From a virus: a stretch of DNA of 64,000 nucleotides. The translations under genes were made by a program, and so were the position numbers. Under the pieces are notes generated by a model that worked only from the letters and a program-made list of their open reading frames with translations, made no database searches and was not told the origin of the DNA. The stretch's first letter is position 1. Every line of letters begins with the position of its first letter. Of the stretch, positions 2,461-52,639 are shown piece after piece. The DNA lies in the IMG/VR virus record IMGVR_UViG_3300005663_000037, positions 36,622-100,621 of that record; one strand, given 5' to 3'.

Positions 2461-2476
2461 TTAAACCACTAATACA

Positions 2477-3435: not shown

Positions 3436-3471
3436 ATTAAAGATAAGTTAAACTACTAAACCCATAAGACA

Positions 3472-3843: not shown

Positions 3844-3855
3844 ACTCATAAGATA

Positions 3856-4074: not shown

Positions 4075-4117
4075 AGAATAAAGATAAAACTATATTATAA
4101 ACTAACTACAAACTACA

Positions 4118-4702
4118 ATGGAAGAGATTAAATTAAGCAACTACGAAAGTACAAAAGTAAATGAGATCTTTGGTATACCTCAGGAAAGAATAGACAGGAT
4201 AGAGTTCTCACTCTATAAGAACCTATTGGCTTGTCTATTCAGTACAGGTGATGAGTCATTGCAAGTCCTAGAGTGTATTATAAACTCCTATGCTAATTCT
4301 GCTAAAGAATCTGTAGCTATTACTCTACTATACGCTGAAAAGATGACGGACATTGCGAAAATGAATGTTACTCATAGAGCAGTACATTGGTTAAAGCTAC
4401 AAGTTAGTAAAGATGTTACTACTTTGGAAGAGTTTGAATCAGTAGCACCTATTCCTTCTACTCTTAATCAGAACCTGGTAGAAGACGCAATACGGTCTAT
4501 GGCAAGAGTACATGTAGAATCTGGAAGCTGTGGACAGCTTGGTACAGGTAACTGTATGTTGGAGGAAATCTATTTAGGTAAAGAGAGTCCGGGTTTGATT
4601 ATAAGACAGGACATGGCAAAGGAACATCCACATTCTTCATCTGAGCTTCCCCATATGCCTAGTCTCGCTGGTCTTAAAAGATTACTAGGAATACGGATAT
4701 AG
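4118..4702 (+). CDS. Hypothetical protein (194 aa)
   Basis: Starts after AACTACAAACTACA. The first 110 residues are largely helical, with a hydrophobic core (YKNLLACLFSTG, AITLLYAEKM). The rest is more polar, with SCGQLGTGNCM near residue 140. It ends in TAG followed directly by TAA. The same frame then continues with 25 lysine-rich codons (see 4706-4783), which may be a lost C-terminus. No family is recognised. Confidence 0.6.
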   Translation: MEEIKLSNYESTKVNEIFGIPQERIDRIEFSLYKNLLACLFSTGDESLQVLECIINSYANSAKESVAITLLYAEKMTDIAKMNVTHRAVHWLKLQVSKDVTTLEEFESVAPIPSTLNQNLVEDAIRSMARVHVESGSCGQLGTGNCMLEEIYLGKESPGLIIRQDMAKEHPHSSSELPHMPSLAGLKRLLGIRI

Positions 4703-34668: not shown

Positions 34669-37600
34669 CTAGAATGTCTTCATATAGTTGATACGTTCTT
34701 CTAAATGCTTCAATCCCCTGATCTGATTCCATAATGGAACTACATCCAGTATCTTATCCCCTTTCCAACGTCCCTTCTTATCTCCCTTCTCATATCTCTG
34801 CCACTCGATACCATCAAAGGTAACGGCTGGTAGCATAGAGTATATTCCCTTACCTAACTTCTCTACTACACTGATAGTAGCCATAGGAGTTCTTAATATC
34901 TTACCTGCTTCTATAGGATTGATAAAGAACCATAGCTCTGAATTAAGTCTATATGCCTGGTACACGGCTAAGTCCCAGAAGAACCTCTTGACTGTTCCTT
35001 CCTCTGGTTCATCTCCAGCTTCTAAACTACTTAGAGCTGTTACAAAAATCAATGTTCCTAGCATCAAGACCCCTTCCTTTATAGTTTGCTGTATAAACAT
35101 TTTTCTCCAAGCCGGCATTTCATTCCAGTTCTTACTACTAGCAGCAACTATTCCTCCCAATCTCTTATAATCCTGTACTACTTCCATCAAAAAGTTTTTG
35201 GTAACTACATATCTACCCGGAAGATTAGCTCCAATTGCTTCATTGAATACTGTCTTACCTGCAAATTTCTCCCTACCAAATCTAGCATCCCATCCTGGAG
35301 CTAACCATCGTCTAAAGAGCATACTCATTCTACCAAGGACTGTTCTTTGCCATACAGTTGTATCCTTTTTGTTATAGTTACCATGAAGGTGTCTGTAAAG
35401 CTCTTTAATCCTCCCTGCAAACTCATATAAGTCTTTAGACAGAATACCTCCTTCCACCAATATACTTCCATCATCCTTCTTAGATATACTGCTATAGACA
35501 TCGGGTAGTTCGTTGAATACTTTCTTATTTGCTTTGTCCATAGGCTTATTGTGCTTCTCAGCCCAGTCCATGAAGGAGTATATCTTCCCTCCTTCTATTC
35601 TATGTGATTTAGCAAGAGACAGAGCTAGTTGAGTCTGCATCGTATGTTCCCCCATGTTGATCATAAACATGGAAGCTCCCATATTCAATCTTTTTAGTAT
35701 TGACTCCTCCTTTAACGGATTACCAAATTCATCAAAGGTCTGGTATATATCATATGCTTCCATATATCTACCAAATGTAGACTCTGTAAACCTTTTGGTA
35801 GTATCTGACATAAACTCAGGAAGTAATTTTATATACTCCTTAGTCGCCCATCTATAATCTGCACCAGTATAGAACAAGCCACCTGCCGTCATGATTGAGT
35901 TCATGAACTGACCTATTGTCATGTTATTAATTCCGGCTGACAGGTTGAATCCTAGTTGTAGTAATGCAGTAGATCTAGTTATTGTATCTAATACCTTAGC
36001 TTTATTAATCTTAGTTCCAAACAAGTCCCCCTCAAACTCCTTGTACTCCCCATATACAACCATGTCCAGATAAGAACTGATTCTCCTATATGCATTAGAT
36101 GTTCGAGGATTGATAGGAGATTGCTTTGGAGCAGGAGCACCTTCTGGAGTAACGGTTTTAATACTGCCCTTAGAGTCTACAACCGTTCTCATTCCTACTA
36201 AGTATTTGACTGCATGTAAATCAGGAGCTATAGAACTCATAGCACTGTAGTTCCTGCTCATGGTCATGAACCTAACTAAGTTTGATACCATATCCAAAGA
36301 AATTGCATTAGTATCCATTCCATTTTCCCCTCCTACCGTACTAACATATTTAACAGGAACCAGTTTGAATGGTCGATCCTGTCCATCTCTTCGTTCAATT
36401 GCATATTCCGTATTCTCTTCAGTTATCTGACTAGCCAATCTTAGTTCATGCTTCATAACACTAAGAGGCCCTTGACCTTCTGACAATCGTTCTTGTGTTG
36501 GTTTAAGAATAGGTATAAGCTGATTACCCTTTCTATATATTGCAGGAAGCTTTTCTTGTGCACTTCCGTAAAACTTATTGAAGAAAGTAATAAACTCCTG
36601 CTCCTCTTTAGCTAATTTCTTAAACTCGGAAGTTCCAGGAATAATATAATCTCCAGTAAGTTCTCCATCTTGCTTTATAAGCATGAAGTCATAGAACTTT
36701 CTGTAATTAAATTCACTTACTCCTTGAGACTTCTTATACTTTCTAAGAGCTTCTGATTGTTTTTGTAACTCTCCATGAACAAAGCTATTCATACTCTTTG
36801 CTATAATAGCTCTCTTACGTTCTACAGCCTTCGCTGTGAGAGCTAAGATAGGATCTACGGAACTAACCATTGCTCCGACCCGGTGCATTCCCTCTGTTAT
36901 ATCTTCACCTATGCTGTTAAGAGAATTACGTAAGTCCTCCTTAGTTAAATTCACATCTCTAGTATAAGGAAATAGAAACTCTACACTATTTTCCAGAGCT
37001 ACTTCCCGGTATATAGATTGTACGTCCTGGACAGCCTTAAGTACTGGTGAAATATATTTATCTCTATATTGTCTGTCAATCTTTAATCCTTCCTCTCCAA
37101 ACTCCCCATACATCTCCTTAAATCCTTCTTCGATTAATCCAAAGGAACTTGCATAATCTAAGAGCTTTTCAAGCTTCACTAGCTTCTCTCTAGGAGTACC
37201 AGCCGCAGCTTCTATCTCATCTAAGTCTTCTATTACGGCTCCCGCTTGGGCATTAGCGAACCGGGTATACTCTAGTATACCCTCTTTATATTGTACTTCC
37301 TCAAGTCTTCTTTCCAATTGCTCCCTCAATTTAACGAGGCTTGCATGGCTTTTTCCCTCTCCAATTTGCCGCTTATAGATCGCTAATTTGTGTTTGAGAC
37401 TATCTATCACTTTTTGGAGAACGTCTAGCTGTCGTGAAATTTGATTATCTCTGGTGGCAAATACAGCGTATCTGAGTTCGTCAGATTCCGGGGCTATCTT
37501 ACCCTCCTGTCTGTTCATAGCTTCTTGCGTCTTTCCAAACAACTCTTCTAAGACACTGCCACTTATATCAACTCCAAGTACAGTATTCAAAGCCTTGATC

Positions 37601-40600
37601 ATAAGATCAACAAACTCACTCCATATTGTAGTGTTCTCTTTCTTACCTTCTATGTAACTCAGTTGCCGTTGGAAATTTCTATCACTATATGCAGCAGTTA
37701 TGAACTCCTCTGGACTACTCAATCCTTGATGATCCGCAGGAAACCTATCCGCTTTCTTAACTCTATCCAGCATATCTACTACCTCTGCACTATACTGTCC
37801 ATCTCTTGATAGTAAAGGCATTGTTGCATAGTGTACAGCTTCATGTGTTAAGGCAAGAGTAAACTCCTCTATACCTAAATCCTCTCTGACTACCATACTC
37901 CGTTCTCGTAGATAGGCTAGAGCATCGGCCCTCTCTCCTTTTACTTTCTCCGTATTTACCTCAAAAGTCCCCTCCCTAAAGTCTACTTCTTCCCTTAATT
38001 TATCTATAAGTAACTGTATATCTTCATCAGCAGATAAAAAGTCAGTAGTATTAAAGAAGGTCTGTAGATTCATCTCCCCCTTTTGTCGTCTTCGAGTAGC
38101 AACAGTATTGGTTCTCAGTGAGAATATAATCCGATTATCTCTATCCTCATGTATATTATAGTTCTTTAACTTATAAGAATCTGTTATAATCTTCACTCTT
38201 TTAAATAGACCTTGGTCATTGAGCTTCTTAAGTAAAACTCTCTTATTAAGTCCTCTATCGAAAGCTACCATAGCTCCAGGCCAATCTGTTGTCACACCTA
38301 AGCCAGGAAGATACGTCTTACTTGACCCTCTTTTGGCAATAAATGACTTAGAAGTATCCTCATAAGATCCTCCATAAGGTACTAAGTCCTTAACGTGAGC
38401 ATTATTTTCTATAAACTGCTCCATAAAGGGTTCCCCAAATACTTGTTCCTTCTCAAATTGTATCATGGAATCCCGGAAGTAGTCAGCCATAGACTCTTGA
38501 GTGAAAGAATACTGGGGATCACTCCATACTTCTATTGGTACTAAGTCAATGATTGAATCAACAGTAGGGGTCATACCTTTGGAAAGAATAGTATAATGAA
38601 TCAAGTTTTTTCCAAACTCTTTAGTTTCAGAATTTTTAAGAATCTCTCGGAAGGCAATTGTTAGATCATCTTGTTCTCTCTGAGATAATCCATATCCTCT
38701 TTCTACTGATACAGTATTGTATCTATTGTCCCTATCCATATTATCTCTATGAGGTAACAATCTAGCAAGTAGTCTGTTATCCTTCATAGCTGGCAGTTCC
38801 TTCACTTTTTGCAATTGTATATCAATCGAATTAGTTCCTACCAGTAGCTCTTGTACCTTCTTCTCCGTGAATAGACCTTGTAACGGCCCCCCTTCTATTG
38901 TCATAAGCCAGAGGAAGGAGTCGTTGTTGATCAAGTTCATTTGATCTGCTGTAAGGTTATCTTTATTGAGATGAGAGACCATTCTACGCTTTATGTTAGT
39001 TAGTCCATCTCTAGTAAAAGGAAAGAACTGAGTTGAGAAATCTTTAGCCGCATTTATAACACCGTTAAAGGTTGAAGTCATTGGATAATCTCTTCCGTCT
39101 AGAACTCCTTCTACTCCTGTAATAATATCATTCCTTCTTTTTCTTCCCTCTCGTTCTTCTACTGGTGTACCATTTGTTACAGAGTCAATCAAGTCATCTC
39201 TTGCCTCAATAGCTGCAATAGTATTGATAGTTCCAGGAGTATCAGAACTAAAAACTCTGTTTACTTCTACTAACTTTCTCCCTGCTATATGAAGGAAATA
39301 GAAGGTAGATAGAAGTTCCATCTGTCCCTCAGCTTCACTTATCTCCTTTCCTATATTTCTTGCTAATACCTCTGTATCTATATTATATAGCCGATCTGTT
39401 CTACCTCCTAGCTTTTCTATTAAACTCTTTAAGTTTGCTGGAGTATTATCCCCACGTAGGTATTTCGTAGTCAACTCTAGAATAACTGGTTGATTAGTTA
39501 GAAGTACTGCTAGATTATTAGCGGCTGCCTCCCATTCACTAGAGGCTACGTTAACTACACCTAGTCTTAGTAGTAAGTTAATGACAGGAGTAGTAAACTC
39601 ATTATCATTAATAGATCCAAGTACAGGGTCTTTAGTATTATCTAAAGCCGCTGACAGTCTAATAGATAAATTGTCAGTAATCAAACGACCATTAGTATCC
39701 TTAACTCTATTGAGCTTAGTATACTTTTCTCCATCTACTATAACGGTGAAGTTACCTTGCAACCTTAACCCCCCATCTGATCTAGCATATTGTCCGATAG
39801 TCTGTCCTTTTAAAGCACTAGCATAGGTACTGATACCCCTACTTGCTGCCTTATTACGTATACTCATTTCTATCTCTGTTCCCGGACTATTTACATTTGC
39901 AAAAGGGTTACCTTTTGACTTCTTGGGTCTGAGTTTATTTGCAGCTTCGGTTAATACAGAACTATCTACACTTTCCAACATTTCCTCTAAGTGAGCAGGA
40001 TTAGTCAGAATCGAAGTATTAATATCTATTATCAGATTCTCAAGTCCTTCTCTAGTATTATCCTCTAAGTCTTCCGTGTTGTATTCAATCTTAGTTATAG
40101 TAGGATTAGTTGCACCTAGTCGTTGTTTTTCTGATTCTAGTTTGGATAAAGCATATTGTACTGATAGTGCGAAGTGACCTTTGAATTTTTCGGGATATTC
40201 AAGGGCAATGTCCTTTGCACTTTCCGGTGTGTGCATTAAACGGCTTAGAATATGGCTCTCCGAGGAATCAAACTTATAACCCTGTTTTTCTAAGGTGGCT
40301 GCAAAGTTACCCATTGGGTTCCACTTTTCCCCTGTCTTAGTAGTGTATTCCACTTTAGCATTAGGCATCATAAGGAATACCTTATCCATATCGAAGTCTG
40401 TACCCATTTGAGTAGTGATCTCGCCAGGAACTAGGATTACCTTACCCATTGACTCAGGCAAAATTCTAACTATTCTAAGTGGAATCATAGAGTTCTTACC
40501 ATGTCCAGGAATTCTATACCCCACAAGGGTTCTTAACTCTCCCGGTATCCCTTCAATATTCGTTATACCGAGTTTTTGAGCTAACTTATAAGGAAGAGCT

Positions 40601-43600
40601 ACTTCGGCTCCTATTACCTTCCCATCTTTATTTCTTACAAACCCTAACTCTTTAGTTCCTTTTTCTTCCTGTACTCCTCCTAACTCTGCTATCTGTACTA
40701 AACTAGCACCGTTAATAGTCTGATTAATAACATTCTTCTTGAATAAAGAAAGTATTATCTGTTCAAATCTCTTCTGATAAGCTGGAAATGCAAGGGGTAA
40801 TTCAAAGGTAACATCATTCTCCGTTTTTATAATGTTTAAGGCCCTTTCATAATTCTCCGGTAAATCTCTCTCTTCTATACTCCTCTTTATTACCCTTCCT
40901 AAGTTCGTATAAAACTTCTCTTTCTCTTCCAACCCCTTTATCTCTTCTTTAATAATCTGAACTTGATCTGGATGATAAACTACAATTTCGTCTACGTCCT
41001 TAATACCATAAGTAGTCTTAGTCTTAGCTTCTGCATCCGTAGTTACCCACTTTGAGATATTTAATTTTACCTCATAGATATGTGTACCATAGACCTTAGC
41101 ATCTTCTCGTGTAAGCGCAAAGTTTATTCCTCGTCCTTCATGTGCTTTACCTTGAAGACTCAGATCGAAGTTCTTTATATCCGGACTGTTCGACCCATGA
41201 TAATACGTCTCTTGTGTAATAGAATTAGGAAAAGGAGTTTCTGTAACAATTTCTTTAGTATAACCTAACTGCTTGTTTAAATCGTCAAGTGACCTACCTA
41301 CAAGTTGTTCTGTTACATTATGATAAAGATCAAAGAGTTCTTCTCCCCCTATCTTCTTACCGCCTAAGATGTATCCCTGTGTCCATTGTCCTTTCTTACC
41401 TCCAACTTCATCTGACAGCATATTAGATATTATATGCTTCCTTGCCTGAGTACTCATCATAACAGGCTTATCATTTTCCGGAACTATCTGAGGAATCCTT
41501 TGAAACCTTGTTTCTAACTCAACTGTTTTCCAGTTACTAAGATCATCATTTATATCCTTTATACCACTGAGATCAAGACCAACCTTTCGGGCTGATTCCA
41601 TGTTAACCTCGTCTATTCCCTGCTCCTCCATCGCCAGTCTCAGTTTCTCAAAAGCAGGAGAGGCTTTAGTAAATTCTCTAAGAAGAGGAAAGACAACGTG
41701 TTTATCTACAACCCGAACTACTCTGTTATCAACATCTAAATGGAATCCATCATAGATAGTTTTAATAGGATTTAACAAAGGTCTTATTCCATCTGGAGTT
41801 ACAAATTCCCCTCCAGCTTGATAATTCTTATAAGCTGCTTCGTGTTCATCAAGCCATGTTCCTTGCCCCTCCATCTTATGCCTGTGCTTATCTAAACTAA
41901 TAAAGCCCATCGAGTCTGTTTTATTAGCCCCCTTTCTATTAGGATTACCGGGTTCTTTTCTATAAGGAGCGATAACCTTTGCAGCTTCCTCAGTCGTAGT
42001 AGGAATAATCTTTTCAAGCCCGTCCAGTGTCTCAATATCCTCTTTAAATACATCCTTAAGAATAGAAGTAGTGTACGTCCTCTTGTCTCCATAAGAGTCA
42101 TTTAAGTCACTTAACTCCAGAGTTTCCATACCAGGAGTGGTAAGGGTTGCTGCTCTCTTATTAAAGTTATCGTAATCAGTATAAAAAGCCAAATCCCCTG
42201 CTATCAATCTCCTAAGTTCATTTTTAACTATAATGTCAGAAATCACATAATCTCTAACCATCTCCCTCCAAGGATCTGTGTTCTTATCTGCTGGATACAA
42301 CTTCCTCCAGTCAGGAGATACCGACTTCTTGTTTATCTTAAGGTTGTCTAATCTTGCTAATTCCGTAGTTAATTCATTTTCAATAAATTGATTAATCTCC
42401 TTTTGAAGATCTCCCATGAGATTCTTATTAGCATCAGTAGCTAACTCAACTTCAATCTGCTTTGCAGTCATATCTTCAACCATCTTCCGAATTTGCTGTG
42501 CAGTCTTAGATTTATTAAGAAAGGGGAGTAAAGTGAATTGCTGAGAGTTCTCTGTATAGTTCTTATATGTACTAGGAGTTCTTTTCTCCCTCTGCATCTT
42601 AGCAATATCTTGATAGAAGTAACTCATTAACATAGCTCTAACACCCATTGTATAGGTATTATGTTTGAGACTATCTTTCATACTTAGTCTAGGTACTACT
42701 GCAAACAGTAACTTCGACCTATCAGCAAAGAGGGGAAAGGCTATATGCATTACGTTTGGAGCCGCACCATTGACAAAAGCATTGTATCTTAAAACAGTTT
42801 CGTCTATCTCATTTAGGTTAGCAAATGTCTTCTTAGCTTCTATTTCTCCTTTGCGTTTATATGCACTGAATTGATACTTGCGAAGGATTCGTCTAAACTC
42901 CGGTTGCTCTAAGATTTGATCTAAGAATATAGATTTATACAATCTATTACCTGTAGGATTATACCATACATCCTTATCGTACATTTCTACGAAGCTAGAT
43001 CCTTCCTTCTTAAACTCCTCAAATACCCTATCAAGAGTACTAGGCATGTTTATAGGATAAACTGTCTTCCCCTCTTCATTTATATAGGAGTCTGTAGTGT
43101 TAGATTCAAAGTTCTTTTGTACTGAAATAGGACGGGTAAGGATACTTATATCTACATCATAGATATTCTGACCGTTCTTTAAGTCAGTGACTAGCTTACT
43201 AAACCCATATGTTTCCCCTATTCCTATAATATATCTGTATAAATTAGCACCAGAATAGTAACTTCCATCTGCCTCAACACCAGTTTCAAGTGCTAGTTCT
43301 AGGTTTTCTTGACTAATATCAGCACCTATAATCTCTAAGAACTCCTGAAGAACGGGAGCTCTCTTAAGTACCTCAGATAGATCTTCAATTACCTTTGCTC
43401 TATCCTCTAAAAGAGGAAGCAAGGTTTCAAGTTTCTGTACCTGTCTCTGATCAACTTCATACTCTAGATTCTCTCCCTTAATAAACAAGTTGTCCTTTGC
43501 ATTCCCTCTCCATCTCTCTAATATACGTCCCTCTGGTCTGGAAGCATTACTGTTGTAGGATCTTACAGTGACAGTCTTTGTATCGTCTTCATACGTCTCC

Positions 43601-46600
43601 TTCTCTATAAAGCCCATAAACTCATTAGAAACTAACATCATGTTTCTATAAAAATCTGCCATGAGTCTGGGATCGTACTCTGGAGAAGACACCTCACTCT
43701 TTCTCCTCAATGCTTCTCCTACCTTTCGGAGCTTCTCTAGTTTAGACGATGTTAGTCTAAATATTGCATCTTCAAGTTTCCTTGAAGTCGTTGTTATTTG
43801 TAAGACATCTGAGTATAGCTCATTGAAAGGTAGGTAGTTATATTGTTTCTTTTCAGGAGTTGAAAGATAACTTTCCTGATCAGTTTTTATAGTAGATAGA
43901 AACAACTTAACTTGACCACTCAGTTTATCTTTCATTGATTCTTCTAAATGAGAACCGATAAGATGATCTTTCTCGTATCTTTCAGGATCATCTGCTGCTT
44001 CTACATCATCATATCTTACCCTATGACCAAACTCTTTTAATTGTCTCTCTGCTTCTTCTCTCCATCCTCTTCCCTCTGGAGGTAAGTTCCCGTAAGGTTG
44101 TTCACTTGTATTCCAATTCTCATATATATGTCTGAATAGGAAGAAGTTCTTACTAAGTCTTACTCCTTTACTTGTTTGCATAATCTTTAAAGACGGAACA
44201 GTAAAGGATTTTATTGAATCATAAACCTTCTTGGCCTCGTCTACACCTAGATTATTACCTGTCTTAGCATCCAGAATAGCATTACTAAGTAAGCCATTAC
44301 GTATCCTTTCGTAGGTTATGAGAGGAGACTCTACTCTGCCTTCCGCAGCAATCTTCTTCTGCTCATCTAGAAATGCCGAGTTGATAGTTCTAAGAAGATC
44401 CTCCTTAGCTTGAGAGCTAACAGAAAACTGCAGGGAGAATACTGTATTGAAGTCACCCTCAGGGCCTAGTATGTCCGCCGGCTCCTCTTTTTCTAGCGGG
44501 GCTTCTCCAAGTGTAATATCAGAAGGCTTCCCAATGTTCTCTTCTAACAAAAGTTGTATGTCCTGGTATATACTACCATTCTTGTTTACAGCATTCGTTA
44601 GAAGAATACCGCCAGCAGGATGTTCCTTAGATGAAGTTAGATAGTTAATATAACTATCGTAGGTATCGTCAAAGGTTACTCTACTCTTATACTTTCCTAC
44701 ACTATTTATTAAGTCCTTTCTTACATTATATCTCTTGTTTTTAAGAAAGTTTCTTAGATTTTGTTCTATAGGATAAGTACTTATAGCTTTACTAGATATA
44801 AACTTCTCAGTTTCTTCATCGTACTTTTGAGGATAAACCGTTCCCTTAACCTTTGTTAGTTCTTCCTGATCTATCTTTATAACTTCTCCCTTTCCACCTT
44901 TTCCAGCAGATGTAGTATCATTAAAGAGAATAAACATTCCTTCCGTTCCTTCTCTTACTTGAAGGAAGAACTTATTATCTCTAGTCTCTATAGCAGAATC
45001 CGTAAACAAAATATGTTCCAACTCCGTTATGTCCCCTTTTCTTAAAAGATTGATCGCTGTATCTACAGCATCATCAGATAGGAAAGAGGTATGTAGTTGA
45101 AGTGCTTTATATATACCGGATGGAGACATAAAGGCTGTATAGATAAGTCCCTGTTTTGACATTTCTGGACCGCCTTCTAAATAGACTGCTCCAAGATCCG
45201 AGATCATCTTCTCGTCACTGAGATTACTTTTGTCTAATTCAATCTTTGTACCTTCTGCAAACTGACTACCTTTAGTGGTAAGTATAGTAAGAGGAACTGA
45301 CTCTAATTCAAACTTATTTCCCTTCTTCGGAACCCATTGAGTTTGGAGAGTGGTTATAGAAATATTAGCTCTAGGAACGGTCATGATGTTTGCGTTACCA
45401 ACTACCTTGCTATAATCTCTATGGTTTTGATTATCTTTGGTAGTAGTACGCATTTCCACTTTCTCACCTGCCTGAAGTCTGCGGTATAATTCCTTTCTCC
45501 CAAGATTGATCGATTCTCCTTCTACTTCCTTATTCCCTGCTAACTTAGCAGCTCTGATTCCACTTTCTTTTATTACTACGAAGATAGGATGTTGATTCCA
45601 TTCTTCTCCTTTAAACTCTTCTTTATGCTCATCCCACCACTTGCTTTCTCCTTCTTTTACTAACTCTAGTTCTACAACAGTACCAAGAGGTAGGTTAGGA
45701 CTAGCTATAATATCCCAATTAATTTCTTCTTCTGGATTAGCTACGATTGGTTCACCATTCGCTAAGACAATTTTCTTGTCGTAGAACTCTCCTTCGTTTT
45801 TATAGTAACCTCCAGATGTAAGTACAGTAGTAGAAGATGTTTCTGGTTTTGTCTTAGGTTCATAGGTATCAGGTGCAGTTTCTTGACTACGCTCCAGAGC
45901 GTCTTCTATCTGTGGAGCTACAATCTCTATATCCTCTCCTGTTATAATCCCAAGCCCCTCTTCTACCATCTCCTGTTCTCGGTCAGTAATTTCCTTAAGG
46001 AGTTTTTCTTTCTGTTCTAGTGTTTCTTCTGTAGTTATATCTATTACGTTACCTGTCTCCGGATGTTTCCAAAGTTGTACTCCCCCCTCATCATACTCCT
46101 TTATATAACCTTGTTCTATTAACTCAGTATCTGTAAGTGGAACTTCGGTAGGAGAAACATGCTCTTCTACTAATTCATCTATAGCCTCCTGAGCTTCTTC
46201 ACTAGTAGTCTCTTTTTTTAACTCTTCTAGAGTCTCAGGTTTTGTCCCTTCAAGGTCTTTCTTTACCCGTTCCTTTGTTGTTGCTTTCTTTTTCTCTCTT
46301 TCTGATTTAATCCTAGCTGCCTCTTCTTTGACAGCCTGTTCTGTTGCCTTTTCTTTACTTTCTAATCTCTTTAGCATAGACTCTCGACTAGCTTCTGCGA
46401 TCTTAGCAGATTGTATTTTATTTCTAGCTTCCGTAAGAAGTTTACTTCGATCTGCTACACTAAGCTCATTAAAGTTCTCAAATTGCTCATTAAGGTAATC
46501 GGCAACTTCTTTCCTAGCTGCCAACTGTTTCTTAGTTATATCTTCCTTCAACATTACCATTACCTCACTATTCTCAGCAATATTGAGTTCATTGAGATAT

Positions 46601-48459
46601 TTTCTGGAAACCAGGTTATTCAACTGATCATGACTTACTACATTATATAGTAACTTTTGATCTTCCTCGGTTGGCTTTAGTTTGTCGTACTCTGTCTGTA
46701 TAGACTTAAGATCTACCTTGGCTTGTTTAAGTTGCTTTGTTAGATCTGTTTTTTCCTTCTTCTTTGCTTGCTCTAAATTCTTTTCTAAGATTTGAATTCC
46801 TCCTTTTACTCCCATCTCAGTACGGAGAAGCTCCGCTGCCAATACTCCATCGGCACTCAACTTACTTATGTCCAGAGACTTAAGACTTATATCCGCCATT
46901 TGTTTGCTGACCTTTCCATTCTGGGCTAGTAACTGTTCATTTTCAAACTGCCTTCTAACAAGAGAATCTGTTATCTTAGGGCCATGCTTATTTATACTAG
47001 CATCCCACAATTGACCTATTCTCTTAGTATTAGCTATAATAGTATCAATTGATTGGATATACTCAGGAGAGAAATCAGCTTGTTCCTCTTTAGGAGCAGT
47101 CTTAAGGATACTGAGATCTTCTACCATCTTGTCTATCTCTCCTAGTGAGGCATTCTTGAGAGCTAGTTCTGCCATCATCTGATCTCTGGTAAACTCTGCG
47201 TTATAAGGATCATCAGTCTTTAACGATTCTACATAGGCATTATTTGCTTGTATGAAGGATGCTTGTCTAGTATTAATTGCATCTATTCTAGCATCGTCAT
47301 AAGACTGTTCACCTGGCTTTACTCCACGCTCAAACAGTTTTTGCTTTAACCCTCGTCCTGCTGTCTGCATAACACCAGCACCGATAGCACCAAAGAACAT
47401 AGCAGTGTGCATCTCAGGTTCTTTAAGATACTGTCCTATTCTATCATGAAACTCTGAATCTTCTGCTAATCCATTCCTAAGATCAGCTAGGTATTTACTC
47501 TCTCTTGCAACTACGTATTGATAGCCTTCTTCAAAACCTTCACCAGCCATATCAATTCCTATTGCTGTTGCCATTTTCCTTCTACTAACTCCTAGTGAAC
47601 CTATATCCCCCACACCCTTAGATGTTTTTGTTGATCTAGCAGTAGCCGATTTCCCAATACCTCTAGATAGTAACATGTACTGTGGTATGTCTTGAAGAAG
47701 CATAGCGTAGTTAGCTATGTATGAAGTATGCGCAGCTTCTGAAGCAATTGATCTAGCCTTATCCTCATTTCCTGTTTTCCTAAGAGCATCATCATAGGTC
47801 TCTTTCCATGTCTGACTAGCTTCCATCATATTCTCCATATGTCTGGAAATAGTAGCCTGTGCAATAGGTTCGGCAAATCTCATAACTCTGCCCATCTTTG
47901 TGCCTATTCCCATCACCTTTCCTAATGCGGCAAGTCCTCTCGTAGCTCCTACAGCTGGTAACATAAGAGATATAGAACTAGCTATACTTGAGCCATTAGC
48001 AGCCCACCATTCAAAGGATAGAGGATGAAATCCACCTGGATCGTGCTCATACACGGGAGTAACTTCCTTAGCTCCTTCCCTGAGCCCCTTACCTATATCT
48101 GATAACCAATTACCCCACTCATCATTTTGTCCTTTAACTGTCTCTGCTATTTCTTGAAAGTCTAGGAGATAGCCTATACCTTCTAGTGTTCCACCAAGGA
48201 GTTCCCCTACAATAGTTTGATTAGCAAATCCCCCAAGTTCACTTAAGAAACCCTGTTGTTCTGCTCTGAATATTCCTCTATCTCCGGCGGTAGGTAGATA
48301 TCCTACATCATATCCAGATACATCTCCCCTATAACCTAAGGGGTCAAAGTCATTAGTAGGAACACTAGAACTTCTCTTACCAAATAAAGCTTCTTCATTC
48401 TTCTCCTTATCTTCAACTAAAGGAGTAGAACTTCTTTTACCAAATCCAGAATCTTGCAT
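34669..48459 (-). CDS. Giant virion polyprotein with RNA polymerase, ART and metallopeptidase motifs
   Basis: At 4,596 aa this is the largest gene. The RNA polymerase signature is at about 2640-2693: YRIPGHGKNSMIPLRIV, VILVPGEITTQMG, then DFDMD (2688-2692) supplying three Mg-binding Asp, as in the double-psi beta-barrel of crAss-like virion polymerases. An ADP-ribosyltransferase-like domain lies at about 2417-2500 (YYHGSNSPDIKNFD, GRGINFALTREDAKVYG). A zinc peptidase motif HEAVH is at 3539-3543. Helical and coiled-coil regions occupy about 540-760. Hydrophobic stretches occur near 155-180, 4170-4195 and 4465. By analogy it is packaged, injected and transcribes early genes; such multi-domain proteins are called polyvalent. 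Related phages often split it into two or three genes. It ends in TAG. Confidence 0.88.
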   Translation of the reverse strand: MQDSGFGKRSSTPLVEDKEKNEEALFGKRSSSVPTNDFDPLGYRGDVSGYDVGYLPTAGDRGIFRAEQQGFLSELGGFANQTIVGELLGGTLEGIGYLLDFQEIAETVKGQNDEWGNWLSDIGKGLREGAKEVTPVYEHDPGGFHPLSFEWWAANGSSIASSISLMLPAVGATRGLAALGKVMGIGTKMGRVMRFAEPIAQATISRHMENMMEASQTWKETYDDALRKTGNEDKARSIASEAAHTSYIANYAMLLQDIPQYMLLSRGIGKSATARSTKTSKGVGDIGSLGVSRRKMATAIGIDMAGEGFEEGYQYVVARESKYLADLRNGLAEDSEFHDRIGQYLKEPEMHTAMFFGAIGAGVMQTAGRGLKQKLFERGVKPGEQSYDDARIDAINTRQASFIQANNAYVESLKTDDPYNAEFTRDQMMAELALKNASLGEIDKMVEDLSILKTAPKEEQADFSPEYIQSIDTIIANTKRIGQLWDASINKHGPKITDSLVRRQFENEQLLAQNGKVSKQMADISLKSLDISKLSADGVLAAELLRTEMGVKGGIQILEKNLEQAKKKEKTDLTKQLKQAKVDLKSIQTEYDKLKPTEEDQKLLYNVVSHDQLNNLVSRKYLNELNIAENSEVMVMLKEDITKKQLAARKEVADYLNEQFENFNELSVADRSKLLTEARNKIQSAKIAEASRESMLKRLESKEKATEQAVKEEAARIKSEREKKKATTKERVKKDLEGTKPETLEELKKETTSEEAQEAIDELVEEHVSPTEVPLTDTELIEQGYIKEYDEGGVQLWKHPETGNVIDITTEETLEQKEKLLKEITDREQEMVEEGLGIITGEDIEIVAPQIEDALERSQETAPDTYEPKTKPETSSTTVLTSGGYYKNEGEFYDKKIVLANGEPIVANPEEEINWDIIASPNLPLGTVVELELVKEGESKWWDEHKEEFKGEEWNQHPIFVVIKESGIRAAKLAGNKEVEGESINLGRKELYRRLQAGEKVEMRTTTKDNQNHRDYSKVVGNANIMTVPRANISITTLQTQWVPKKGNKFELESVPLTILTTKGSQFAEGTKIELDKSNLSDEKMISDLGAVYLEGGPEMSKQGLIYTAFMSPSGIYKALQLHTSFLSDDAVDTAINLLRKGDITELEHILFTDSAIETRDNKFFLQVREGTEGMFILFNDTTSAGKGGKGEVIKIDQEELTKVKGTVYPQKYDEETEKFISSKAISTYPIEQNLRNFLKNKRYNVRKDLINSVGKYKSRVTFDDTYDSYINYLTSSKEHPAGGILLTNAVNKNGSIYQDIQLLLEENIGKPSDITLGEAPLEKEEPADILGPEGDFNTVFSLQFSVSSQAKEDLLRTINSAFLDEQKKIAAEGRVESPLITYERIRNGLLSNAILDAKTGNNLGVDEAKKVYDSIKSFTVPSLKIMQTSKGVRLSKNFFLFRHIYENWNTSEQPYGNLPPEGRGWREEAERQLKEFGHRVRYDDVEAADDPERYEKDHLIGSHLEESMKDKLSGQVKLFLSTIKTDQESYLSTPEKKQYNYLPFNELYSDVLQITTTSRKLEDAIFRLTSSKLEKLRKVGEALRRKSEVSSPEYDPRLMADFYRNMMLVSNEFMGFIEKETYEDDTKTVTVRSYNSNASRPEGRILERWRGNAKDNLFIKGENLEYEVDQRQVQKLETLLPLLEDRAKVIEDLSEVLKRAPVLQEFLEIIGADISQENLELALETGVEADGSYYSGANLYRYIIGIGETYGFSKLVTDLKNGQNIYDVDISILTRPISVQKNFESNTTDSYINEEGKTVYPINMPSTLDRVFEEFKKEGSSFVEMYDKDVWYNPTGNRLYKSIFLDQILEQPEFRRILRKYQFSAYKRKGEIEAKKTFANLNEIDETVLRYNAFVNGAAPNVMHIAFPLFADRSKLLFAVVPRLSMKDSLKHNTYTMGVRAMLMSYFYQDIAKMQREKRTPSTYKNYTENSQQFTLLPFLNKSKTAQQIRKMVEDMTAKQIEVELATDANKNLMGDLQKEINQFIENELTTELARLDNLKINKKSVSPDWRKLYPADKNTDPWREMVRDYVISDIIVKNELRRLIAGDLAFYTDYDNFNKRAATLTTPGMETLELSDLNDSYGDKRTYTTSILKDVFKEDIETLDGLEKIIPTTTEEAAKVIAPYRKEPGNPNRKGANKTDSMGFISLDKHRHKMEGQGTWLDEHEAAYKNYQAGGEFVTPDGIRPLLNPIKTIYDGFHLDVDNRVVRVVDKHVVFPLLREFTKASPAFEKLRLAMEEQGIDEVNMESARKVGLDLSGIKDINDDLSNWKTVELETRFQRIPQIVPENDKPVMMSTQARKHIISNMLSDEVGGKKGQWTQGYILGGKKIGGEELFDLYHNVTEQLVGRSLDDLNKQLGYTKEIVTETPFPNSITQETYYHGSNSPDIKNFDLSLQGKAHEGRGINFALTREDAKVYGTHIYEVKLNISKWVTTDAEAKTKTTYGIKDVDEIVVYHPDQVQIIKEEIKGLEEKEKFYTNLGRVIKRSIEERDLPENYERALNIIKTENDVTFELPLAFPAYQKRFEQIILSLFKKNVINQTINGASLVQIAELGGVQEEKGTKELGFVRNKDGKVIGAEVALPYKLAQKLGITNIEGIPGELRTLVGYRIPGHGKNSMIPLRIVRILPESMGKVILVPGEITTQMGTDFDMDKVFLMMPNAKVEYTTKTGEKWNPMGNFAATLEKQGYKFDSSESHILSRLMHTPESAKDIALEYPEKFKGHFALSVQYALSKLESEKQRLGATNPTITKIEYNTEDLEDNTREGLENLIIDINTSILTNPAHLEEMLESVDSSVLTEAANKLRPKKSKGNPFANVNSPGTEIEMSIRNKAASRGISTYASALKGQTIGQYARSDGGLRLQGNFTVIVDGEKYTKLNRVKDTNGRLITDNLSIRLSAALDNTKDPVLGSINDNEFTTPVINLLLRLGVVNVASSEWEAAANNLAVLLTNQPVILELTTKYLRGDNTPANLKSLIEKLGGRTDRLYNIDTEVLARNIGKEISEAEGQMELLSTFYFLHIAGRKLVEVNRVFSSDTPGTINTIAAIEARDDLIDSVTNGTPVEEREGRKRRNDIITGVEGVLDGRDYPMTSTFNGVINAAKDFSTQFFPFTRDGLTNIKRRMVSHLNKDNLTADQMNLINNDSFLWLMTIEGGPLQGLFTEKKVQELLVGTNSIDIQLQKVKELPAMKDNRLLARLLPHRDNMDRDNRYNTVSVERGYGLSQREQDDLTIAFREILKNSETKEFGKNLIHYTILSKGMTPTVDSIIDLVPIEVWSDPQYSFTQESMADYFRDSMIQFEKEQVFGEPFMEQFIENNAHVKDLVPYGGSYEDTSKSFIAKRGSSKTYLPGLGVTTDWPGAMVAFDRGLNKRVLLKKLNDQGLFKRVKIITDSYKLKNYNIHEDRDNRIIFSLRTNTVATRRRQKGEMNLQTFFNTTDFLSADEDIQLLIDKLREEVDFREGTFEVNTEKVKGERADALAYLRERSMVVREDLGIEEFTLALTHEAVHYATMPLLSRDGQYSAEVVDMLDRVKKADRFPADHQGLSSPEEFITAAYSDRNFQRQLSYIEGKKENTTIWSEFVDLMIKALNTVLGVDISGSVLEELFGKTQEAMNRQEGKIAPESDELRYAVFATRDNQISRQLDVLQKVIDSLKHKLAIYKRQIGEGKSHASLVKLREQLERRLEEVQYKEGILEYTRFANAQAGAVIEDLDEIEAAAGTPREKLVKLEKLLDYASSFGLIEEGFKEMYGEFGEEGLKIDRQYRDKYISPVLKAVQDVQSIYREVALENSVEFLFPYTRDVNLTKEDLRNSLNSIGEDITEGMHRVGAMVSSVDPILALTAKAVERKRAIIAKSMNSFVHGELQKQSEALRKYKKSQGVSEFNYRKFYDFMLIKQDGELTGDYIIPGTSEFKKLAKEEQEFITFFNKFYGSAQEKLPAIYRKGNQLIPILKPTQERLSEGQGPLSVMKHELRLASQITEENTEYAIERRDGQDRPFKLVPVKYVSTVGGENGMDTNAISLDMVSNLVRFMTMSRNYSAMSSIAPDLHAVKYLVGMRTVVDSKGSIKTVTPEGAPAPKQSPINPRTSNAYRRISSYLDMVVYGEYKEFEGDLFGTKINKAKVLDTITRSTALLQLGFNLSAGINNMTIGQFMNSIMTAGGLFYTGADYRWATKEYIKLLPEFMSDTTKRFTESTFGRYMEAYDIYQTFDEFGNPLKEESILKRLNMGASMFMINMGEHTMQTQLALSLAKSHRIEGGKIYSFMDWAEKHNKPMDKANKKVFNELPDVYSSISKKDDGSILVEGGILSKDLYEFAGRIKELYRHLHGNYNKKDTTVWQRTVLGRMSMLFRRWLAPGWDARFGREKFAGKTVFNEAIGANLPGRYVVTKNFLMEVVQDYKRLGGIVAASSKNWNEMPAWRKMFIQQTIKEGVLMLGTLIFVTALSSLEAGDEPEEGTVKRFFWDLAVYQAYRLNSELWFFINPIEAGKILRTPMATISVVEKLGKGIYSMLPAVTFDGIEWQRYEKGDKKGRWKGDKILDVVPLWNQIRGLKHLEERINYMKTF

Positions 48460-50204
48460 TACTTGTTTTTAGTTTTGTATACGTCTAGAATGTCTGATAG
48501 TAGATCAGCAAAGTTACTATATTCTAAGTTATAAGTCTTTCCATCAAACTCTTCAATAAAGTATCCACTTGTCTCTACTTGACCTTGTGAATTTCTTCTT
48601 GTCTTCTTTCGTCCCTTTATCTTCATTTCGGGAAGTACCTCCCCCTCATTAGTTATACCAGGAGTAGTATCAAATAGATTAAACAGGGAAGTAGTAGCTA
48701 TGTTTTGAACTTTAGGACTTGACTCACTCATAACGTACTGCTTCTGTCCTGTACTAGTACGTATATTAACTACATTTCCATCTAGTATAGAAGGGTTATC
48801 AGCTATATTTCCTAAATAGCTAATAGGATTAAGTCCTCCTACATAGGTAAGATCTTCTAAATCAGAATAGAGTTCGCTTCTTTCTTCCTTCCTCACCTGT
48901 TTAATATTGCTAAGATCATCTATTTCAAAGAGCGTCCTTTGTAAAAAAGCAGCAGTTAATTCATCCTCCTTGTTTCGTCTAATTGCTGGATCACTTGTAC
49001 CAATGATATAATTTTGACTAACTCCAGGAAGTACATCCTTTTGATACTGATCCCACATATCTAGCATAGAGGAGCTAGTATAATCAAAGTTTTTAGGTGC
49101 TTCTTCTCCTGTCATTACTCTAAATACTTCAGAACTCTTATCTAAGTATTCCTTATTAAGTTTTATATTACTCTCCTGTTGAACAGTCTCATCAAATTTT
49201 CCTCCTATACTTGTATCAGCAAGAAACTTTGAGTACTCAGTAAGTGACTCTACGTCACCTTTAAACTGAACTGCTGATCTAGGATTAAACCCAAACTTAG
49301 TCTTAATGCTAGGTTTTACTGGTATATCCCCTAAACGTTCTAATGTCAAAGTACTTGGATCCCCTGGTTTCTCTACTCTATTCAGGAAAGAAGGAAAAGA
49401 ATAGGAACTTATATCATTGCTACGAACTTGTCTGGAAGCTACACCCTGTAAGTAGGTCAGTACACTCATCTCTTTTTCCTCTTCTGTCATCTGTCTTCCT
49501 AACTGTTCCTCATGTACCCTCAGAAGTTGTTTTCCTTCATCTGAATTTAAGAAGTGAAATATAGACTGTTTAGCTCTCTCATCTGTTCTGGCCTCTGTTA
49601 CTCTTCCTGTATATCTTCCTGTTCTTATACCAGCAACAGCATCATCAAATAATGAAACTAATTCTGGTGGCATTTCCCCGCTCTCCCCTAATATCTTACC
49701 TAAAGACTTTTCTGCCTGTCCTAACCAATCTAACTGTTGCTGTCCCCCAAATCGTCCAGGTATATATCTACCAGTCTCGGGATTAATAGTAGTTGTTGGA
49801 TCTCCTGTATCAAAGAGTAGACTTTCACCTGCAAAATCAGCCTGTTGTCGTAGTTTCTGTGCCTGCTTGTAGTTTGCGGAAGTCTGGGCAAGGGCTAGTA
49901 GTCGGGGGTCACTAACTAACTGCCTAGTCAGTCCTCGTGCCCTTGTTTGAAAGTCAGGATTATAAAGACCTCCCTTGGAGGAGTCTATCAACTCCCTATA
50001 TGCTTGATCAACCCCCCCTGCGATCTCACTTCTCAGTTCAACGTCCCCAGGAGCTACATCCAATGTACCGAAGTAATCAAGGATAGTTTGCTCTTGTTCA
50101 GAATTTTTTGCGTACCTATTCTCCATTGTTCCGAGTAGGTTACCAAATTGATCCACAGGCTGCTCTTGACTAGCATACTGCGTTGGTCTAAATTGTAAAG
50201 GCAT
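48459..50204 (-). CDS. Virion-associated protein (581 aa)
   Basis: Its stop overlaps the giant gene's start by one base, so the two are coupled. Starts MPLQFRPTQYASQEQPVDQF. Mostly helical and charged, with EQTILDYFGTLDVAPGDVEL, QTRARGLTRQLVSDPRLLAL and a beta-rich end. In crAss-like genomes this slot, just upstream of the polymerase polyprotein, holds cargo or injected proteins. No enzymatic motif is seen. Confidence 0.65.
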   Translation of the reverse strand: MPLQFRPTQYASQEQPVDQFGNLLGTMENRYAKNSEQEQTILDYFGTLDVAPGDVELRSEIAGGVDQAYRELIDSSKGGLYNPDFQTRARGLTRQLVSDPRLLALAQTSANYKQAQKLRQQADFAGESLLFDTGDPTTTINPETGRYIPGRFGGQQQLDWLGQAEKSLGKILGESGEMPPELVSLFDDAVAGIRTGRYTGRVTEARTDERAKQSIFHFLNSDEGKQLLRVHEEQLGRQMTEEEKEMSVLTYLQGVASRQVRSNDISSYSFPSFLNRVEKPGDPSTLTLERLGDIPVKPSIKTKFGFNPRSAVQFKGDVESLTEYSKFLADTSIGGKFDETVQQESNIKLNKEYLDKSSEVFRVMTGEEAPKNFDYTSSSMLDMWDQYQKDVLPGVSQNYIIGTSDPAIRRNKEDELTAAFLQRTLFEIDDLSNIKQVRKEERSELYSDLEDLTYVGGLNPISYLGNIADNPSILDGNVVNIRTSTGQKQYVMSESSPKVQNIATTSLFNLFDTTPGITNEGEVLPEMKIKGRKKTRRNSQGQVETSGYFIEEFDGKTYNLEYSNFADLLSDILDVYKTKNK

Positions 50205-50206
50205 AT

Positions 50207-52639
50207 CTATTCTAGTCTATTTCTATACTTAGGTTTAACTCCTGCTAATTCCAGTAATTCTGACTTTGTCATACCAAGAGACGCAGCTAGTTCATCAGGG
50301 TCTGTAGTCGATAATAACTGCAATAGCATTGCTCTTGACTGCATATCCCCTTGTTGAGCATTAGCCACTAAGTTCTGTATTTCTTGTGAAGTAGCTTCTG
50401 TTGCGGATACCCTAGCTGCAACAGCTTGGTTCTGCATCATAGCACTAACTTGAGCAGCTCTATTAGCTTCTGCTACATTTCGTGCTCCTACTTGAGTACC
50501 AATTCGTTGTTGTCCTAACTCAAACTGGCCTCTTGCTTGTTCATCTGCAATAGCTGCTGATGTATTAGCATTAACCATCTTACCAAATGTAGCTGCTCTT
50601 CCCAATGTTCCTGCTGTTCCTGTTACATTAGCCATACTCTCAGCACTTGCTAAATATGATTGTTCATTTCTACGTTGTATAGAAGGGAGTCTACTTCTGT
50701 ATCTTAAAGGATTGAAAGATTGATAAGTAGGATCATATCCAGTTTGTAAATTCTTTAAAGCTCGGTTTCTACTAATTGCACTAATTCCTACATTAGCTAT
50801 GTTAATTAGATCTCCTGCATTGTCTTTTGCAAAATTTCCAACTCCCTGACCTATATCACTATTCACAAGATTGAATCCTCTCCTTTTAAACCTGCTCATG
50901 TTAGCAGGATCTCTTCCTAAGCCTTCTACAGTATCAAATGGAAGAGATGAAGATTGTGGCGCTCCTCCATTAGGATCTATTTCATAAGTTCCAAATCCTT
51001 TTCCTGTCTGTACTGCTCCTAAATTTGCTACTGGATCTTCTATACCATACTTATATTGATTGGCTATTTGCTGCCAGTCAGGTATCTCCAATCCATCTTG
51101 TCCTTTCTTCTTTAATCTACCTCCGTATTTCTTTTTATCCTTTGTTGGACTAAAAAGATCTTGTAGTTCTTGATTCCCACCAAAACTTTCTTCATCCTCT
51201 ACTCTCTTAAAAGGAGCATTCAATCTCTGTTGGTAGTCAAGCAATTTTTGATCCTGAATATTATCAAATATTATCTTTCGTAAAGAAATCTTATCATCAA
51301 CAAACAACTTACCTGCATCAAAAGAGGGAGGAATAGATGTAAGGGGAGTAAGCTCTCCACCATCCTGTCTTTTTTTACCTCCGAAGTTCTTAGCAAAGTT
51401 AGCTTTCTTCACTATAGCAGGAGAGTACCTATCTTTATTTGACATTACTGCATTAGCAGCAGCCTGAACACTATCATGACCATGCCTCTTAGCCCATCTA
51501 GTAAAGGAACCTCTTCTAGAAGGCTCAATATACATACTTCCTCCCTTCTTCCGTAACGGCACACTACCTCTACTTCCCATTGGAGCCAGAGGAGTATTAG
51601 GATCAAAATCAACCGTAGGTCTATTCAGATCACTATTGAACTTGTTCCACCAATCTTGTACAGGAGTACCAGGAATAGTTACAGGCATATTAGAATTCAT
51701 CATAGGATGACTATACCTATAGTTTAATGCATCTGTTGGATTTATCTGACCTCTCGTTGGAAGCTGATCATAATATCCTTTTACTTGGGGAAGTTCTTTA
51801 CCTACTGTTTGTTGTCTAGCCATTGGATTATTATTAAATTCTGATTCATAAAATCTATCATATATCTCAAAAGGATAATTAAGTTGATCTACGTCAATTC
51901 CTTTATCTTTTAAAAAAGGAGGATCTATATCCCACTTATCATATACAGAAATATATCTACCCTTTTCGTCCGTTCCCGTACTAAGTTGATGTTTACCTAG
52001 TAAATCGCCAAAAAGAAGACGGGGTTCCTCATAGTTCTCCAAGAGTTCCATATTTGCTTTATACATTTGTCTTCTCTTTTGAAAGATATTTCGGGAAGGA
52101 TTCTGTGCAGATTCATAGGCATAATCAAAGGCACCAGGAGTATTCATCCGTCTCTTGGCTCTCTCTTTCATTGTAGCACCAATCGTATAGTATGTTGCGT
52201 CTGGATCTGTTGCTCTTGTGGGTTTGTACTGAGATTTTACTAAGTGACGAGGACGATCTTCTGGAATACCATAGTACTTGTTTATAAACTCCTTTCTAGC
52301 CTTCTGTACCTTCCTATCAGGAGGAATAAAGAAACCCTGTTTCTTTCCGGCTTTAACTCTATCCACAAACCTAGTAAGGTCTTTCAAACTCGTTGGGTAA
52401 CCAAAAGACTGAGCTTCTGCTATTCTCTTTCTTAAATCTAATTCTTCGGGAGAAAATTCACCATCTCCTCTACGATTCTTAAAATCTACTAGCGCATTAT
52501 ATAGGTCTACTAAAGGTTCTTTTTTATCTTTTGGTATTAATCCATATAGAAGACTATTAATTGTAGACAGGCGTTCTGGTGTAAATTTAGGAATTTCACC
52601 GCCATCTTGATACCTACGCTGACTTCTTTTATAAGCCAT
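50207..52639 (-). CDS. Virion cargo-type protein with QDGGE motifs (810 aa)
   Basis: Three short repeats punctuate the protein: RRYQDGGEIPKF at the start, KKRQDGGELTPL near 425, and KKKGQDGLEIPDW near 512. The FTRWAKRHGHDSVQAAANAV to VKKANFAKNFGG segment (about 375-420) is a motif I know from internal proteins of Bacteroidota phages. The C-terminal third is Ala/Gln-rich and helical (AAQVSAMMQNQAVAARVS-type). Probably packed in the capsid and processed or injected. It lies 2 bases from the 581-aa gene's start. Confidence 0.65.
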   Translation of the reverse strand: MAYKRSQRRYQDGGEIPKFTPERLSTINSLLYGLIPKDKKEPLVDLYNALVDFKNRRGDGEFSPEELDLRKRIAEAQSFGYPTSLKDLTRFVDRVKAGKKQGFFIPPDRKVQKARKEFINKYYGIPEDRPRHLVKSQYKPTRATDPDATYYTIGATMKERAKRRMNTPGAFDYAYESAQNPSRNIFQKRRQMYKANMELLENYEEPRLLFGDLLGKHQLSTGTDEKGRYISVYDKWDIDPPFLKDKGIDVDQLNYPFEIYDRFYESEFNNNPMARQQTVGKELPQVKGYYDQLPTRGQINPTDALNYRYSHPMMNSNMPVTIPGTPVQDWWNKFNSDLNRPTVDFDPNTPLAPMGSRGSVPLRKKGGSMYIEPSRRGSFTRWAKRHGHDSVQAAANAVMSNKDRYSPAIVKKANFAKNFGGKKRQDGGELTPLTSIPPSFDAGKLFVDDKISLRKIIFDNIQDQKLLDYQQRLNAPFKRVEDEESFGGNQELQDLFSPTKDKKKYGGRLKKKGQDGLEIPDWQQIANQYKYGIEDPVANLGAVQTGKGFGTYEIDPNGGAPQSSSLPFDTVEGLGRDPANMSRFKRRGFNLVNSDIGQGVGNFAKDNAGDLINIANVGISAISRNRALKNLQTGYDPTYQSFNPLRYRSRLPSIQRRNEQSYLASAESMANVTGTAGTLGRAATFGKMVNANTSAAIADEQARGQFELGQQRIGTQVGARNVAEANRAAQVSAMMQNQAVAARVSATEATSQEIQNLVANAQQGDMQSRAMLLQLLSTTDPDELAASLGMTKSELLELAGVKPKYRNRLE

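What the first reader, a model, noticed from the sequence alone, without database searches (positions are those of the whole stretch)
34669..48459. Single 4,596-aa fusion carrying the virion RNA polymerase
The DFDMD loop (2688-2692) and the preceding YRIPGHGKNSM and VPGEITTQMG segments mark the polymerase. Many crAss-like phages divide this material over several genes; here it is one gene. It would be among the largest phage proteins and should be cut or unfolded for injection.
Basis: partly seen in the sequence, partly recalled or inferred. Interest (0 to 1): 0.62.

Follow-up and report, generated by a model that had tools for sequence, protein, structure and literature searches.

The report
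Giant phage polymerase with ADP-ribosyltransferase-like insert
A crAss-like phage makes its injected RNA polymerase as one 4,596-residue protein that joins three parts usually made separately, and, alone among 158 related polymerases compared, it carries an extra enzyme-like (ADP-ribosyltransferase-like) domain inserted into the polymerase itself.

Summary
The ORF is real (34669-48459, minus strand, 4,596 aa; DFDMD at aa 2688-2692). Its core is a two-barrel virion RNA polymerase of the phi14:2 gp66 kind: sequence E 4.5e-23; AlphaFold model of aa 1990-3060 matches 6VR4 at E 1.7e-32; K2233/K2253 of the second barrel are invariant. The protein is a three-in-one fusion of the crAss001 gp47-, gp50- and gp49-type cargo proteins, with a zincin-like domain (HEAVH 3539) between the last two. 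Fusion alone is not rare: nine relatives carry all three parts in one reading frame, up to 5,714 aa, and a single origin with the main fused group is rejected (AU p 3e-76). Cutting is unsupported: most of those relatives lack a zincin motif. It is absent from 157 other cores (barrel gap 118 aa versus at most 40). The same ART family sits in linker positions of the vRNAP genes in many crAss-like phages. Its catalytic tyrosine is Asn (H2421-N2446-E2491), so activity is uncertain. New variant of a known kind.

The parts
34669..48459 (-). ORF of 4,596 aa: three-in-one virion RNA polymerase cargo protein
46960..48282 (-). gp47-type N-terminal segment (aa 60-500)
   Evidence: blastp to p-crAssphage gp45, E 8.5e-16; iterated profile also finds crAss001 gp47
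44530..45852 (-). gp47-type middle segment (aa 870-1310), a separate ORF or part of one in several relatives
38110..44442 (-). catalytic subunit, gp50/gp66 type (aa about 1340-3450)
41260..42267 (-). second barrel region, DPBB-B side (aa 2065-2400) with invariant K2233, K2253, K2292 and Q2338, aligned to gp66 K1012, K1027, K1065 and Q1116
40924..41247 (-). ART-like insert (aa about 2405-2512) between the two barrels, aligned to a single point near gp66 residue 1173
40330..40914 (-). catalytic barrel DPBB-A (aa 2516-2710)
40384..40398 (-). DFDMD metal-binding loop (aa 2688-2692), aligned to gp66 D1361/D1363/D1365
39445..40062 (-). conserved region downstream of DPBB-A (aa 2800-3005) with invariant D2940; likely bridge helix/trigger loop (inference)
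37540..37872 (-). zincin-like domain (aa 3530-3640; HEAVH at 3539-3543, later ...SSPEEFITAAYSD...)
   Evidence: iterated profile from this segment reaches the annotated zincin of p-crAssphage gp45 and phi14:2 g065
34678..37422 (-). gp49/g065-type C-terminal part (aa about 3680-4594)
   Evidence: blastp to crAss001 gp49, E 2e-47
48459..50204 (-). 581-aa upstream gene, in the position of crAss001 gp46 (assignment by position only)
50207..52639 (-). 810-aa upstream gene, in the position of crAss001 gp45 (assignment by position only)

Best explanation
The ORF encodes a virion-packaged RNA polymerase cargo protein of a deep-branching crAss-like phage in which the three cargo proteins usually made separately (gp47, gp50 = catalytic, gp49) are one chain. 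Shown by comparison: a two-barrel catalytic core, gp47-type and gp49-type ends, a zincin-like domain between the last two parts, and an ART-like domain inserted in the connector between the barrels. Inferred: the chain is packed in the head, passes through the tail partly unfolded, refolds in the host and transcribes early genes, as reported for phi14:2; the ART-like domain enters the host as part of the polymerase and acts as an early host-modifying domain, or, since its catalytic Tyr is Asn, as a binding/regulatory domain on the clamp. No cleavage is required.
For: Core: phmmer to 6vr4_A E 4.5e-23; AlphaFold pLDDT 82, pTM 0.81; Foldseek to 6vr4_A E 1.7e-32, QDE-1 next; invariant Lys and Asp in 53 sequences, mapped to gp66. 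Fusion: homology along the chain to gp47-, gp50- and gp49-type proteins; origin separate from the L017-L023 fusions, AU p 3e-76. Insert: 97-98% gap in the other 52 rows while both flanks are nearly gap-free; barrel gap 118 aa versus at most 40 in 157 other distinct cores; ART-family HMM i-E 2.7e-6 at the right place, next in the protein 0.34; 41 of 49 members of the alignment hit Pfam ART-PolyVal; all 50 listed PDB structural hits are ART/PARP domains; BFVD hits include PolyVal ARTs at prob 1.00. Habit: 60 of 80 loci carrying this ART family also carry the crAss polymerase, always with the ART in a linker; a close relative (L183) has it between the 47 and 50 parts.
Against: No virion proteomics; packaging is by homology. 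The insert itself has no Pfam hit and is poorly modelled (pLDDT 65; best PDB E 0.08). Its catalytic Tyr position is Asn. The unique insertion and the fusion rest on one assembled genome. The tree is a 'quick' one with long branches.
Confidence: 0.78

Rival explanations
1. The chain is a precursor cut into gp47-, gp50- and gp49-like pieces during assembly or on entry, possibly by its own zincin-like domain; the one-gene arrangement is then only an expression format.
For: Relatives carry the same parts as separate genes, with breaks at corresponding linkers; the window has a zincin motif at the 50/49 linker.
Against: The HExxH motif is absent from L017, L018 and L020-L023, which are also fused; zincin position varies among relatives and it also occurs in phages with separate genes; P23-45 gp96 (5,002 aa) is full-size in virions (PMC10770324).
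Confidence: 0.2
2. The insert is a degenerate ART fold kept as a structural or binding element on the clamp, for example to hold DNA, RNA or a host factor, with no NAD+ chemistry.
For: The triad Tyr is Asn (H2421-N2446-E2491); the insert is shorter than most family members and diverges at otherwise conserved flank positions; it sits on a functional part of the polymerase.
Against: His and Glu are kept; Tyr is not strictly conserved in the family (26 Y, 13 F of 48).
Confidence: 0.45
3. The insert is an ART that modifies host proteins at the start of infection, as proposed for T4 Alt and for ART-fused N4-like polymerases.
For: Homology to ART-PolyVal; the same family accompanies the vRNAP in many crAss-like phages; precedent for N4-like vRNAP fused to ART (PMC5512222) and for injected Alt (PMC9503650).
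Against: Triad Tyr missing; no activity data.
Confidence: 0.35
4. The fusion or insertion is an assembly or annotation artefact.
For: Single metagenomic record; in the closest relative the 50 and 49 ORFs overlap by 13 bases in different frames (L013), so one indel could join them.
Against: Codon periodicity holds across the ORF; the 50/49 linker of the window holds a zincin-like domain not found there in L013; nine other relatives are fused too; the insert is in frame and homologous to domains found in vRNAP genes elsewhere.
Confidence: 0.04

Closest known systems
phi14:2 gp66 virion RNA polymerase (PDB 6VR4)
   Same: Two-barrel core, DFDxD loop, conserved second-barrel Lys, gene order beside other large virion proteins
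   Different: gp66 is 2,180 aa with g065 and g067 as separate genes; no insert between the barrels
p-crAssphage gp44/gp45 and cr50_1 4,774-aa protein
   Same: Partial fusions of the same three parts (50+49 in p-crAssphage; 47+50 in cr50_1)
   Different: Not all three in one; no ART domain between the barrels
IMG/VR relatives L017, L018, L020-L023, L192, L220 and L083
   Same: All three parts in one reading frame (5.2-5.7 k aa; L020 is cut at its 5' end, L018 has a stop near its N-terminus)
   Different: Longer, separate fusion origin (tested for L017-L023), mostly no zincin motif, no insert between the barrels
ART-PolyVal (PF18760) domains of polyvalent proteins
   Same: Profile-level homology; His and acidic residue of the triad
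   Different: Tyr replaced by Asn; placed inside the polymerase core instead of in a linker; below Pfam detection on its own
N4-like virion RNAP polyvalent proteins (PMC5512222)
   Same: Giant injected RNAP protein carrying zincin-like and ART domains
   Different: N4 polymerase is T7-like single-subunit type; here a two-barrel type, so the similarity is convergent
P23-45 gp96 (PMC10770324)
   Same: About 550-kDa vRNAP fusion of the two-barrel type
   Different: Fused to a tail tape measure protein; lacks the clamp into which the ART-like domain is inserted here

Membership tests
crAss-like virion RNA polymerase (gp66 type) | DxDxD metal loop in DPBB-A | tested here: met
   D2688/D2690/D2692 invariant in 53 sequences, aligned to gp66 1361/1363/1365
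crAss-like virion RNA polymerase (gp66 type) | Second barrel with conserved Lys in the same chain | tested here: met
   K2233, K2253 invariant, aligned to gp66 K1012, K1027; which of the invariant Lys line the active site was not checked on coordinates
crAss-like virion RNA polymerase (gp66 type) | Overall fold | tested here: met
   Foldseek 6vr4_A E 1.7e-32, prob 1.00
crAss-like virion RNA polymerase (gp66 type) | Crassvirales genome context | tested here: met
   TerL, MCP and gp49-type matches to Crassvirales; gene order as in phi14:2
crAss-like virion RNA polymerase (gp66 type) | Present in the virion and active early in infection | not testable with these tools
   no virion sample
ART-PolyVal (PF18760) | Pfam match at the curated cut-off | tested here: not met
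   No hit for the insert
ART-PolyVal (PF18760) | Homology to recognised members | tested here: met
   Family HMM i-E 2.7e-6 at aa 2408-2501; 41 of 49 rows of the alignment hit PF18760
ART-PolyVal (PF18760) | ART fold | tested here: inconclusive
   All 50 listed PDB hits are ART/PARP, but best E 0.08; BFVD PolyVal ART prob 1.00, E 2e-3; model pLDDT 65
ART-PolyVal (PF18760) | H-Y-[DEQ] catalytic triad | tested here: not met
   H2421 and E2491 present, Tyr position is N2446
crAss zincin-like domain | HExxH plus similarity to the annotated p-crAssphage zincin | tested here: met
   HEAVH 3539; iterated profile reaches p-crAssphage gp45 (6e-23) and phi14:2 g065
MPTase-PolyVal (PF18818) | Pfam match | tested here: not met
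   No match at E 10
N4-like virion RNAP | T7-like single-subunit polymerase | tested here: not met
   The polymerase matches the two-barrel type instead
P23-45-type TMP-fused vRNAP | Fusion to a tape measure protein | not tested
   No tape measure test was made; flanks match gp47/gp49-type cargo

The most novel reading that the evidence does not exclude
The polymerase is its own delivery and aiming vehicle for an ADP-ribosyltransferase: the ART on the clamp modifies the host RNA polymerase or the phage's own transcription complex at the site of early transcription. More widely, crAss-like phages carry an ART effector family inside their virion RNA polymerase cargo, making them a second, convergent case of an injected transcription-plus-modification system beside N4-like phages and T4 Alt.
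Probability: 0.2. Interest if true: 0.82.

Novelty: new variant of a known kind. Interest (0 to 1): 0.6.

Why it matters
crAss-like phages are dominant viruses of the human gut, and how they take over their hosts is little known. A recurrent ART domain family in their injected polymerase genes gives a concrete, testable candidate for early host modification. An ART-like domain on the polymerase clamp would be an unusual way to regulate or extend an RNA polymerase. The repeated fusion and splitting of the three parts also shows that this cargo works with either covalent layout, which bears on how such large proteins pass through the tail.

Tried and rejected
Pfam, PHROGs and NCBIfam scans of the whole protein gave nothing useful. 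A single-sequence search for relatives in viral contigs failed; an alignment query worked. tblastn of the insert against phages and plasmids found nothing, and a single-sequence scan of viral contigs likewise; the homology came only through L078 and L008, noticed by a motif search and weak tblastn. PF18760 and PF18818 searches of the genome gave no match. The ART profile against solved structures by sequence found nothing. Considered and rejected: intron or intein (no such domain, ORF continuous); the idea that three-part fusion is unique to this phage (nine others); the idea that these fusions share one origin (L083 lies far from both groups). The Vav, TetR, LPP20 and syntaxin-like weak hits were taken as chance. 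The Drobysheva 2020 paper is not held, and figure 3 of PMC7886860 cannot be read here, so an earlier drawing of a three-part fusion or an ART domain is not excluded.

Full report
Observation. The ORF at 34669-48459 on the minus strand is continuous, 4,596 aa, and contains the motifs at the positions stated. It is clearly coding: the chance of no stop over this length is about 10^-158, and the codon-position composition is nearly constant along it.

The polymerase. phmmer against the PDB gives phi14:2 gp66 (6vr4_A) at E 4.5e-23, with aligned stretches at aa 2066-2352 and 2639-2968. An alignment with 52 IMG/VR relatives keeps D2688, D2690, D2692, K2233, K2253, K2292, Q2338, Y2648, R2649 and D2940 in every row; these map to gp66 D1361/D1363/D1365, K1012, K1027, K1065, Q1116, Y1321 and D1612. 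AlphaFold on that alignment for aa 1990-3060 gives pLDDT 82 and pTM 0.81. Foldseek returns 6vr4_A at E 1.7e-32 and then QDE-1. Virion packaging and early transcription are inferred from phi14:2, as summarised in PMC7886860.

Three parts in one. In crAss001 the cargo is gp47, gp50 and gp49, and gp47 lies on the other strand; in phi14:2 it is g067, g066 and g065. p-crAssphage fuses 50 and 49, as cr3_1 does; cr50_1 fuses 47 and 50 into 4,774 aa. The window has all three: aa 124-375 match p-crAssphage gp45, 2066-3000 match gp50/g066, and 3939-4594 match gp49/g065. Across 158 distinct cores, nine other proteins carry the gp47-type N-terminal profile and the gp49-type profile in one frame, up to 5,714 aa. 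On a tree of the core the window groups with L013 and L014, whose gp49 is a separate ORF, so its 50-49 fusion most simply arose apart from that of L017-L023; the alternative of one clade is rejected (AU p 3e-76). The counts of changes are at least 10 for the 47/50 junction and 4 for the 50/49 junction. Gene layout is thus labile, and the parts evidently work joined or apart.

Zincin. HEAVH at aa 3539 lies in the 50/49 linker. A profile started from this segment reaches the annotated zincin of p-crAssphage gp45 and the N-terminus of phi14:2 g065. Position varies among relatives, and the motif is missing from L017, L018 and L020-L023, so a general role in cutting the fusion is unlikely.

The insert. 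Pairwise alignments with relatives break at aa ~2400 and resume at ~2520, while the relative has few residues between. In the alignment these columns are up to 98% gap, with nearly gap-free flanks; among 158 distinct cores the barrel-to-barrel gap is 118 aa in the window and at most 40 elsewhere. The insert sits between helices at aa 2372-2398 and 2497-2530 of the model, in the connector between the second barrel and the catalytic barrel, which PMC10770324 describes as one element of the clamp. Placement at the tip of a helical hairpin is inference from secondary structure; I had no coordinates.

What the insert is. By itself it has no Pfam, PDB or phage match. A motif search found an ART in the gp47-type protein of cr85_1 (L008), and weak similarity pointed to the gp49-type ORF of L078; both are Pfam ART-PolyVal (3.7e-23 and 4.9e-12). 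An IMG/VR scan from the L078 type gave 181 relatives, 80 kept. An HMM of 70 of them hits the window at aa 2408-2501 with i-E 2.7e-6, searching the window protein alone, and nothing else in it better than 0.34. In the alignment used for modelling, 41 of 49 rows hit ART-PolyVal and 2 hit PARP. A model of the insert is moderate (pLDDT 65), yet all 50 listed PDB neighbours are ART/PARP domains, with best E only 0.08, and viral neighbours include PolyVal ARTs at probability 1.00. His2421 and Glu2491 of the triad are kept; the Tyr position is Asn2446. I therefore call it ART-like and homologous to ART-PolyVal, not an active ART.

A wider pattern. Of 80 loci found through the ART family, 60 also encode the crAss polymerase core and 57 the gp49 part within the fetched stretch; several of the rest are cut short by contig ends. 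The ART lies at the N-terminus of the 49 ORF, at the C-terminus of the 50 ORF, in a small ORF between them, or between 47 and 50, never between the barrels. The close relative L183 has it between 47 and 50. I found no paper in the held library that links ART domains to crAss-like polymerases; PMC5512222 reports ART and zincin-like domains fused to N4-like polymerases, which are of another type, and proposes a T4 Alt-like role. The crAss-like case would be convergent.

Mechanism. Most likely the chain is packed whole, leaves through the tail partly unfolded, as argued for crAss001 cargo in PMC10172136, and refolds to transcribe early genes. P23-45 gp96, a 550-kDa fusion, is full-size in virions (PMC10770324), so size alone does not call for cutting. 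The ART-like domain enters the host with the polymerase. Whether it modifies host proteins or serves as a binding element on the clamp is open; the missing Tyr tilts me slightly to the second.

Verdict. The fusion itself is a new member of a known and labile series. The domain between the barrels, and the habit of carrying this ART family in the polymerase cargo, are the parts worth following.

Noticed in passing
L101-L180 (ART loci), e.g. L102:10001-10468: The ART family has nearly identical ends (SQYLDTIFPDSKVKDIVYHGT ... VFEPEQIHILGSKQDIEGFKEF) around a highly variable core of differing length, as if the core were a swapped or fast-diversifying cassette.
   Followed up: partly
L093 (Leptolyngbya phage Lbo-JY46): A phage of a cyanobacterium carries gp47-type (1,555 aa) and gp49-type (2,751 aa) ORFs, but the barrel profiles found no catalytic core there; either very divergent or lost.
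   Followed up: no
L078:12703-18246: The gp49-type ORF also matches Pfam PDDEXK_1 (5.8e-6, over cut-off) and weakly a GNAT acetyltransferase, beside its ART: a polyvalent-type protein.
   Followed up: no
L004, L081, L096: The catalytic subunit is broken near the DxDxD motif into two ORFs, in L004 with an annotated endonuclease gene between, probably an intron.
   Followed up: no
window 47200-48459 (-), aa 213-247: Sub-threshold ChaB-like match (E 8e-4) in the gp47-type N-terminal part.
   Followed up: no
whole genome (100,621 bases), L099 and L100: TerL is about 33% and MCP about 27% identical at most to the listed best matches in the phage collection, so the phage looks like a deep branch outside the named families.
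   Followed up: partly
L255, L256: Relatives of the polymerase occur on contigs binned as Eubacterium and Ruminococcus; binning error or non-Bacteroidota hosts.
   Followed up: no
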